Shown: positions 2,888 to 4,291 of the stretch, one piece after another | Position numbering within the stretch: position 1 is the stretch's first letter | Layout: the number at the start of each line of letters is the position of its first letter | Assembly: GCA_005884605.1 (NCBI GenBank) | Contig: VBBE01000102.1 | Span: 1 to 7,033, forward strand | DNA: 7,033 bases | Reading direction: 5' to 3' | Source: Candidatus Bathyarchaeota archaeon | GTDB lineage: Archaea; Thermoproteota; Bathyarchaeia; 40CM-2-53-6 | Translations under genes and position numbers: made by a program | The notes under the pieces: generated by a model | Databases searched by the model: none | Told to the model about the DNA's origin: nothing | The model's input: the letters and a program-made list of their open reading frames with translations, nothing else

Positions 2888-3793
2888 ATGAGAATCCCGT
2901 TGGCGACATTCGACCATCCCTTTCTCCCCAACGCAGGTGCGCCGATTCGAAAAATCATGCTCGAGGCGATCGGCGTCGCCTCCATAGACGAGCTATATTC
3001 TGACATTCCAAGTCAGGTTCGAACAAACAATGGATTGAAGGTGGACTGGCTGCCTTCAGAGCAGGAGGTCAAAGGTCACATAGATCAAATGCTAGCCGAG
3101 AACAAATCGGCGAGTGATATGCCAGTCTTCCTCGGGGCAGGCCTTTACAATCATTATCTTCCCGCGGCGGTCAAGGCTATACTCGCAAGGACCGAATTCC
3201 AGACCTCTTACACTCCCTATCAGGCAGAAATCTCCCAAGGACTCCTCCAGTCCTTATTCGAATTCCAGTCCATGATCGCTGACCTTACCCAGATGGACGC
3301 TGTCAACTCCTCCCTGTACGATGGGTCGACAGGTCTGGGCGAAGCTGCTAGGATGGCGTCTAGAGCGACGGGAAGGAAGAGGATCCTGGTGCCCGAAGGT
3401 TTGCATCCTGGAAAGTTCTCTGTTTTGAAAAACTACACGGAACCAGCAGGCATCGGAATCGAGACTTTCAGATACGACAGAGAGACAGGGGGCCTGGAAA
3501 AAGGCGACCTGCAAGCCAAAATCGATCGGGACACTGCTGCGGTATATTGCGAGGTTCCCTCGTTCTTTGGCGTCCTGGATCCAGAGGTCGCTAACGTTCC
3601 CTCGATGTGTCATGCGAAGGGGACTCTGTCGATTGTGGGCTTTGATCCCGTATCGCTGGGAGGATTGAAACCTCCAGGAGAGTATGGAGCAGACATCGTG
3701 ATAGCAGAGGGCCAGTCGATATCGACCGAGATGAACTTCGGGGGACCTGCACTGGGGATAATAGGGTGTCGGGGAGAGAATTTGATTCGTTAA
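2888..3793 (+). CDS. gcvPA: GcvPA N-terminal portion, ending at the internal TAA
   Basis: This 301-residue open frame holds the N-terminal arm (HPFLPNAG, 10-17; SIDELYSDIP, 32-41), the FLGAGLYNHYLP segment (81-92), TSYTPYQAEISQG (106-118), LFEFQSMIADLTQMD (123-137), SSLYDGSTGLGEAA (141-154) and the C-terminal AEGQSISTEMNFGGPALG (273-290), all hallmark blocks of glycine dehydrogenase subunit 1. GcvPA is the partner that lacks the PLP lysine and pairs with GcvPB; together they decarboxylate glycine and pass aminomethyl to the lipoyl arm of GcvH. The ATG at 2888 is the likely start; a TTG at 2900 would give MATFDHPFLPN and is possible. If translation stops at 3791 the product lacks roughly the last third of the subunit, including the TREQHIRREKATSN block, and is unlikely to assemble normally (inference). 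Confidence 0.78.
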   Translation: MRIPLATFDHPFLPNAGAPIRKIMLEAIGVASIDELYSDIPSQVRTNNGLKVDWLPSEQEVKGHIDQMLAENKSASDMPVFLGAGLYNHYLPAAVKAILARTEFQTSYTPYQAEISQGLLQSLFEFQSMIADLTQMDAVNSSLYDGSTGLGEAARMASRATGRKRILVPEGLHPGKFSVLKNYTEPAGIGIETFRYDRETGGLEKGDLQAKIDRDTAAVYCEVPSFFGVLDPEVANVPSMCHAKGTLSIVGFDPVSLGGLKPPGEYGADIVIAEGQSISTEMNFGGPALGIIGCRGENLIR

Positions 3794-3814
3794 CTACCGG
3801 GCCGACTGATCGGC

Positions 3815-4291
3815 ATGACTACAACTCTCGATGGAAAGGAGAGAGCATTCAGCATGGTCCTTCAGACCAGGGAACAGCACATCCGCCGGGAGAAGGCTAC
3901 ATCTAACATCTGCACAAATGAGGCTCTGTTTGCAATAGGAGCAGCTGTCTATCTTTCCCTCCTCGGTCCTCAAGGTCTTCGCCAGCTGTTCGAGAACATT
4001 CTCGTCAAGACGAGCTACGCGATCAAGATGCTCGGCGAGATAACAGGCGTCGTAGTGCCCCGTTTCAGTGGTCCGCACTATCAAGAGTTTGTTGTTTCGT
4101 TCGAAGGCGCGAAGGGAACCCTTGCCAGATTGAACAAGTCACTGCTCAGCCATGGAGTTCATGGGGGTAAGAGCCTCGTGAAGGACTTCCCCGAAATGGG
4201 TGAGAGTGCGCTTTACTGCGTGACAGAAGTCCATAGCACCGAAGCCATTGACAAGCTTCGGCTCCTCATCGAAAAACTTCTAGAGGCGTAG
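3815..4291 (+). CDS. gcvPA: GcvPA C-terminal portion, after the internal TAA
   Basis: This 158-residue open frame begins at an ATG 21 bases after the TAA and in the same frame. It contains the GcvPA block LQTREQHIRREKATSNICTNEAL, the AAVYLSLLGPQGLRQL helix and the small C-terminal domain (FSGPHYQEFVVSF, LLSHGVHGGKSL, ALYCVTEVHSTEAIDKL). The ATG replaces a residue inside the usual PGR(I/L)(V/I)GET segment, so it is not a natural domain boundary, and no Shine-Dalgarno sequence precedes it. It is more likely the rest of an interrupted gcvPA than a separate gene, though re-initiation close to the stop cannot be excluded. It ends in TAG three bases before the gcvPB start, the spacing of a gcvPA-gcvPB operon. 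Confidence 0.5.
   Translation: MTTTLDGKERAFSMVLQTREQHIRREKATSNICTNEALFAIGAAVYLSLLGPQGLRQLFENILVKTSYAIKMLGEITGVVVPRFSGPHYQEFVVSFEGAKGTLARLNKSLLSHGVHGGKSLVKDFPEMGESALYCVTEVHSTEAIDKLRLLIEKLLEA
4283..4286 (+). promoter_or_regulatory. Shine-Dalgarno site fixing the TTG start of gcvPB
   Basis: GAGG lies in the last codons of gcvPA and 8 bases before the TTG at 4295. No ATG or GTG is in range in this frame, and the protein family begins close to the FHQAKWDEPL motif, so this site and the motif together support TTG as the start and translational coupling to the end of gcvPA. Confidence 0.6.

What the first reader, a model, noticed from the sequence alone, without database searches (positions are those of the whole stretch)
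3788..3817. Single in-frame TAA in an otherwise perfect gcvPA
The frame from 2888 to 4291 is complete and conserved on both sides of one ochre codon at 3791-3793. The stop replaces the residue between Arg and (L)PGR in a motif I know from GcvPA proteins. The codons straight after it still spell LPGRLIG, so the downstream part has not decayed, and gcvPB is intact. Options are a base-call or assembly error, a very recent nonsense mutation (CAA or AAA to TAA), or recoding of TAA by read-through. All three matter for interpreting glycine metabolism in this organism.
Basis: partly seen in the sequence, partly recalled or inferred. Interest (0 to 1): 0.7.

Follow-up and report, generated by a model that had tools for sequence, protein, structure and literature searches.

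The report
One-base stop in an archaeal gene
A single stop codon interrupts an otherwise intact glycine-breakdown gene in a soil archaeon's DNA fragment; the close relatives examined have glutamine there, so this is most likely a base-call error or a very recent private mutation, and nothing unusual.

Summary
A TAA at 3791-3793 interrupts gcvPA (frame 2888-4291) on a contig whose nearest relatives are soil Bathyarchaeota; the frame is otherwise complete. Read with X at the stop, it scores 542.7 bits against the GcvPA model (cut-off 364).

The stop was seen in this contig alone. Glutamine stands there in 120 of 120 listed homologues and in the 18 nearest of 34 fetched loci (12 CAA, 6 CAG). A catalogued 218-residue protein matches the window at every residue except the stop, where it has Gln, and its first residue, an alternative start. 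One C-to-T transition explains the TAA.

Recoding is unlikely. TAA ends 43 of 194 long ORFs in those 18 loci, including two orthologous gcvPA genes. The one read-through precedent I read in passages lost its read-through when its stop became TAA (PMC4895105). Ordinary decay is also unsupported: close sisters are intact, and the sequence after the stop looks constrained.

What remains is a consensus error (my preference, about 0.6) or a very recent nonsense allele (about 0.35). Reads would decide; none were available, and no genome is held for the window.

The parts
2888..4291 (+). gcvPA (glycine dehydrogenase subunit 1) frame, interrupted once; probable true start TTG at 2900
3791..3793 (+). 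in-frame TAA in place of a conserved Gln codon (CAA in 12 and CAG in 6 of the 18 nearest loci)
2888..3793 (+). piece before the stop, 301 aa, GDC-P profile positions 12-276 of 429
3794..4291 (+). piece after the stop, 165 codons and TAG, GDC-P profile positions 283-384; includes QTREQHIRREKATSNICT; first ATG at 3815 would give 158 aa
4295..5818 (+). gcvPB (glycine dehydrogenase subunit 2), intact, TTG start

Best explanation
The TAA is a private single-base difference (C to T at 3791, CAA to TAA) in this one contig, in a gene that is otherwise functional in its species. Most likely it is an error in the metagenome consensus sequence rather than an allele of living cells, and the organism makes ordinary full-length GcvPA that pairs with GcvPB. 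Shown: the stop, its absence from everything examined, near-identical sibling proteins with Gln, no decay behind it. Inferred: that the base itself is wrong.
For: Gln in 120 of 120 listed homologues and in 18 of 18 loci L001-L018, 12 as CAA; L001, L002, L003 and L018, among the nearest, all have CAA. P0133 (218 aa, cluster of 14 sequences) differs from the window only by Gln at the stop and by its alternative-start first residue; P0064 (339 aa) has Gln and differs at 3 further residues. No clear decay: dN/dS against L001 is 0.092 before the stop and 0.11 after it; against L002, 0.085 and 0.076. The 10 nearest sister genomes each have a single gcvPA (the second match in each is gcvPB), a GcvH over the cut-off (10 of 10) and a GcvT over the cut-off (9 of 10), so an intact gene is expected. 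Other faults occur in public records of this group: a run of N in gcvPA of L018 (a gap, or masking by the collection), a deletion with frame change in L017, breaks in gcvPB of L004, L013 and L016.
Against: The other genes of the window aligned full length to sisters without a lesion, so the consensus is good elsewhere, and the faults in sister records are gaps and indels, not substitutions. C to T is also a common natural mutation (recalled). No reads were available, so the error reading is inferred.
Confidence: 0.6

Rival explanations
1. A real, very recent nonsense mutation private to one strain. GcvPA is cut to about 297-301 residues and loses the conserved part after the LPGR motif, so the glycine cleavage P-protein is inactive in those cells, unless the ATG at 3815 reinitiates and the two pieces assemble.
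For: The rest of the contig's genes are clean. One transition from the commonest relative codon makes the stop. The private amino-acid changes behind the stop are shared with the sibling P0133, so the stop is younger than that split, as a new mutation would be. dN/dS is slightly higher after the stop than before it in 7 of 10 comparisons (L001, L004, L005, L007, L008, L009, L018; lower in L002, L003, L006), which are not independent.
Against: No second occurrence in what was searched: 57 gcvPA matches in a 151-genome phylum sample had no internal stop. No second lesion in the gene. The gene is single-copy in the 10 nearest sisters and conserved.
Confidence: 0.35
2. Recoding or read-through: the TAA is decoded as an amino acid and full-length GcvPA is made in these cells.
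For: The frame is conserved on both sides. A 5-bp hairpin could form 7 nt after the stop. Read-through of an internal stop in a C1 enzyme is known: acsA, TGA, Clostridium autoethanogenum (PMC4895105, passages).
Against: TAA behaves as a terminator in the group: 43 of 194 ORFs of 200 aa or more in L001-L018 (mechanically chosen), including the gcvPA genes of L013 and L014. None of the 18 loci has the TAA. The same hairpin stem lies in L001 and L002, which have CAA, and the fold of the 100 nt after the stop is little better than shuffles (z -1.33, 19 of 200 as good). No Rfam match at the gathering threshold. In the acsA case, changing TGA to TAA eliminated the full-length product. PylS: 0 of 10 sisters over the cut-off, 7 of 10 with weak sub-cut-off matches such as 13 of 14 control genomes also give; Pyl would be TAG in any case (recalled).
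Confidence: 0.02
3. Split gene: the pieces of 301 and 158 aa are made separately (stop, then ATG 21 nt later) and reassemble into a working subunit.
For: An ATG (the conserved Met of LIGM) lies 21 nt behind the stop. A catalogued 158-aa protein starting at that Met exists (P0135).
Against: P0135 sits on a 1,088-base contig, where a contig edge can explain it; other 158-aa entries were not read. The Met is part of the motif in most intact proteins. No evident Shine-Dalgarno motif precedes the ATG (sequence). [quoted passage not shown]
Confidence: 0.03

Closest known systems
GcvPA, aminomethyl-transferring glycine dehydrogenase subunit 1 (NCBIfam NF001696; solved structure 1wyt chain A)
   Same: Read with X at the stop, 542.7 bits against a 364 cut-off over profile positions 2-444 of 447; aligns to 1wyt_A over residues 13-464, with Gln at the stop's position there; followed by gcvPB.
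   Different: One TAA in place of that Gln; each piece alone falls under the cut-off (354.2 and 171.2 bits).
acsA of Clostridium autoethanogenum, internal TGA read through at low frequency (PMC4895105, passages read)
   Same: One in-frame stop in an otherwise intact gene of one-carbon metabolism, with a sense codon in the related species compared.
   Different: There the stop is TGA, was confirmed by Sanger sequencing, and read-through was shown by Western blot; its replacement by TAA eliminated the full-length product. Here the stop is TAA and unconfirmed.
Pseudogenes and nonsense alleles in general
   Same: Premature stop in a conserved gene.
   Different: No second lesion, no clear excess of amino-acid change after the stop, and no relative examined shares it.

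Membership tests
GcvPA (NF001696) | Full-length match over the curated cut-off | tested here: inconclusive
   Met only when the stop is read as X (542.7 against 364); the two pieces as encoded score 354.2 and 171.2, under it.
GcvPA (NF001696) | Adjacent gcvPB and conserved neighbourhood | tested here: met
   gcvPB at 4295-5818; same gene order in the 7 loci printed of 18.
Recoded stop codon / alternative genetic code | The codon is not used as an ordinary terminator in the lineage | tested here: not met
   TAA ends 43 of 194 ORFs of 200 aa or more in L001-L018. Tested in sisters only; the window's own genome is not held.
Recoded stop codon / alternative genetic code | The stop is conserved at the site among relatives | tested here: not met
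   18 of 18 loci L001-L018 have CAA or CAG there.
Recoded stop codon / alternative genetic code | A tRNA that reads TAA | tested here: inconclusive
   Only 7 anticodon calls, none for TAA, came from 23 tRNA loci of two sister genomes; two of the 7 appear to be one gene seen twice. Far from a full set.
Decayed pseudogene | Further lesions or relaxed selection behind the stop | tested here: not met
   No further stop or frameshift; dN/dS after the stop 0.032-0.177 against L001-L009 and L018, before it 0.040-0.129.
Sequencing or assembly error | Reads disagree with the consensus base | not testable with these tools
   No reads, and no genome held for the window.

The most novel reading that the evidence does not exclude
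The TAA is real and is read as glutamine at useful frequency in this strain, for example by a near-cognate or mutated glutamine tRNA, so that full-length GcvPA is still made: sense decoding of an ochre codon in one soil archaeal lineage.
Probability: 0.015. Interest if true: 0.75.

Novelty: not a real feature. Interest (0 to 1): 0.07.

Why it matters
It matters little. An annotation pipeline would split gcvPA into two pieces and might call the glycine cleavage system broken in this organism; the comparison shows Gln at the site in near-identical sibling proteins and an intact gene in close sister genomes. Only if reads proved the TAA fixed in the population, with full-length protein present, would it become interesting.

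Tried and rejected
Shared lineage feature: rejected, 0 of the 18 nearest loci share the stop; the other 16 loci (L019-L034, more distant) were not counted for the codon. In the order-wide search (38 genomes, 36 with a match) two matches had an internal stop: G002 a TAG, which lies before the conserved start, and G011 a TGA at a deletion with frame change (apparently the contig of L017). Neither is at this site.

Second gcvPA copy relieving selection: the window's genome is not held; the 10 nearest sisters show one copy each. More distant genomes of the order can have two (for example G012).

Relaxed selection: changes private to the window, at sites where L001, L002, L003 and L018 agree, are 5 synonymous and 8 other in gcvPA (including the start and the stop) against 16 and 6 in gcvPB. 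Without start and stop, 6 to 5 against 6 to 16, Fisher p 0.15. dN/dS is also slightly higher after the stop than before it in 7 of 10 comparisons. Both lean slightly towards relaxation, but the four private amino-acid changes behind the stop are shared by the sibling P0133, and those at residues 149 and 165 by P0064, so they predate the stop.

Cut copies elsewhere: the 301-aa and 158-aa searches were meant to find independent copies of the cut allele. None with the stop at this codon was seen among the 120 listed in each, of which I read 8 sequences. One distant entry, P0124 (297 aa, 69% identity), ends one residue later, on the Gln itself; no contig is given for it, so I cannot say whether that is a contig edge, an error or a stop. 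Clustering at 90% could hide a cut copy.

Structural placing of the stop: the AlphaFold model is poor (mean pLDDT 59.7) and is not used; no fold search was made. RNA signal behind the stop: nothing much beyond shuffles, no Rfam family. Plasmid records, queried with 2888-3790 only: one record, 15% of the query. Phage records, whole window: none. Paper searches gave one precedent, read as passages (PMC4895105), and general passages on read-through (PMC7783166); other papers were seen in listings only.

Full report
What is there. The window is a 7,033-base stretch with open ORFs at both ends. Its genes are an ATP-grasp-like protein (450-1526), a small ORF (1523-1759, minus), a glycosyl transferase family 4 protein (1787-2917, minus), gcvPA (2888-4291), gcvPB (4295-5818) and an FtsZ/tubulin-family protein (6013 to the end). 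The nearest loci are metagenome-assembled archaeal genomes: of L001-L018, 12 are titled Candidatus Bathyarchaeota, 2 Crenarchaeota, 3 archaeon and 1 bacterium; that they come from soil I take from their titles (depths such as 40cm) and from recall. The frame 2888-4291 holds exactly one internal stop, TAA at 3791-3793, followed by LPGRLIG. The two pieces match GcvPA profile positions 2-286 and 290-445 of 447. The start is probably the TTG at 2900: L002 has a TAG just before the Met at that place, and 19 of the 32 best homologues are 463 residues long.

Who else has it. Nobody found. In the 120 listed homologues (of 7,999 scored) the residue is Gln in 120 of 120. Over all 252 fetched proteins, 204 hold the motif: 198 Gln, 2 His, 2 Ala, 1 Asn, 1 Thr; 48 do not span it or lack it. 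The solved structure 1wyt_A has Gln there; the mitochondrial enzyme 6i33_A has Met, so Gln is not universal. In loci L001-L018 the codon is CAA in 12 and CAG in 6; L019-L034 were not counted. In 38 genomes of the order, 36 have a match. Only two matches carry an internal stop, neither at this site: a TAG before the true start, and a TGA at a deletion with frame change. In a 151-genome phylum sample, 57 matches in 56 genomes at E up to 1e-60 carry none. One distant catalogue protein, P0124 (69% identity), ends one residue later, on the Gln; its contig is not given.

How old it is. P0133, a catalogued 218-aa protein whose cluster has 14 sequences, equals the window at every residue except Gln at the stop and its first residue, an alternative start codon read as Met. 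P0064 (339 aa) has three further differences. So the base change is younger than the split from a sibling with the same protein there, or is not real. The tool shows '-' as P0133's source, its mark for a protein that the window itself encodes. As P0133 has Gln and its listed longest contig is 3,656 bases, shorter than the window, I take it to be another record clustered with the window's own piece, but its DNA and sample are unknown to me.

Selection. Nei-Gojobori dN/dS against L001 is 0.092 before the stop, 0.11 after it and 0.089 in gcvPB; against L002 it is 0.085, 0.076 and 0.065; against L018 it is 0.129, 0.177 and 0.081. Over the ten close loci the value after the stop is slightly higher in 7 and lower in 3, always far below 1. 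A slight excess of private amino-acid changes in gcvPA (Fisher p 0.15) involves changes shared with the siblings where these cover the site. I see no clear decay.

Recoding. TAA ends 43 of 194 ORFs of 200 aa or more in L001-L018 (TAG 99, TGA 52), and the orthologous gcvPA genes of L013 and L014 end in TAA. The 5-bp hairpin just after the stop is not unusual (z -1.33), and the same stem lies in L001 and L002, which have CAA. There is no Rfam match. The tRNA check in two sisters was too incomplete to count: 7 anticodons from 23 loci. The precedent I read, acsA of Clostridium autoethanogenum, reads through TGA weakly and loses the full-length product when the codon is TAA (PMC4895105, passages). 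I put recoding at about 0.02.

Would loss matter to the cell? The sisters have one gcvPA each (10 of 10), GcvH over the cut-off in 10 of 10 and GcvT over the cut-off in 9 of 10. The piece behind the stop holds the stretch QTREQHIRREKATSNICT, largely conserved in 1wyt_A and nearly identical in 6i33_A. A real stop without read-through would therefore very probably inactivate the P-protein; this is inference, as the structure model was too poor to use.

Verdict. Either a consensus error (0.6) or a private, very recent nonsense allele (0.35). The other genes of the window are intact and syntenic with the seven loci printed, which keeps the second option alive. Neither is novel; I mark it 'not a real feature' because I think the error more likely.

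Noticed in passing
1-445: Nucleotide similarity to five sister loci starts abruptly at 445-446, while sisters L002, L003, L009 and L018 share the 3 kb upstream of that point with L001 at 80-93%. The minus-strand ORF at 2-355 has only a sub-threshold hit to a transposase N-terminal model (E 0.2; no Pfam hit; two weak PHROG hits) and 31 residues at 58% to a short ORF at a similar place in L006. A mobile-element insertion is likely; a chimeric join is not excluded.
   Followed up: partly
4289-4297: gcvPA ends in TAG, and gcvPB starts one codon later in the same frame (TTG or ATG), so reading the TAG would give a fused GcvP. The spacing is the same in L001-L007, L009 and L018, while L008 is one base off. 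TAG is the commonest stop in these loci (99 of 194), and no PylS is over the cut-off in 10 sisters, so this is probably just tight packing.
   Followed up: partly
L018 10001-12906: Against the window, L018 is closer in gcvPA (dS 0.16-0.23) than in gcvPB (dS 0.61); the nucleotide identity steps from 91% to 86% at the run of N in gcvPA. This suggests recombination, or a scaffold join between two strains.
   Followed up: no
L004 12500-12640; L013 4700-4840; L016 11850-12000; L017 10130-10330: gcvPB (L004, L013, L016) and gcvPA (L017) carry deletions or frame changes without any N; they look like assembly faults or strain-specific lesions.
   Followed up: partly
450-1526: ATP-grasp-like protein with sub-cut-off hits to PylC-like_N, ATP-grasp_3 and carbamoyl phosphate synthase-like models, conserved near gcvPA in the seven loci printed.
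   Followed up: no
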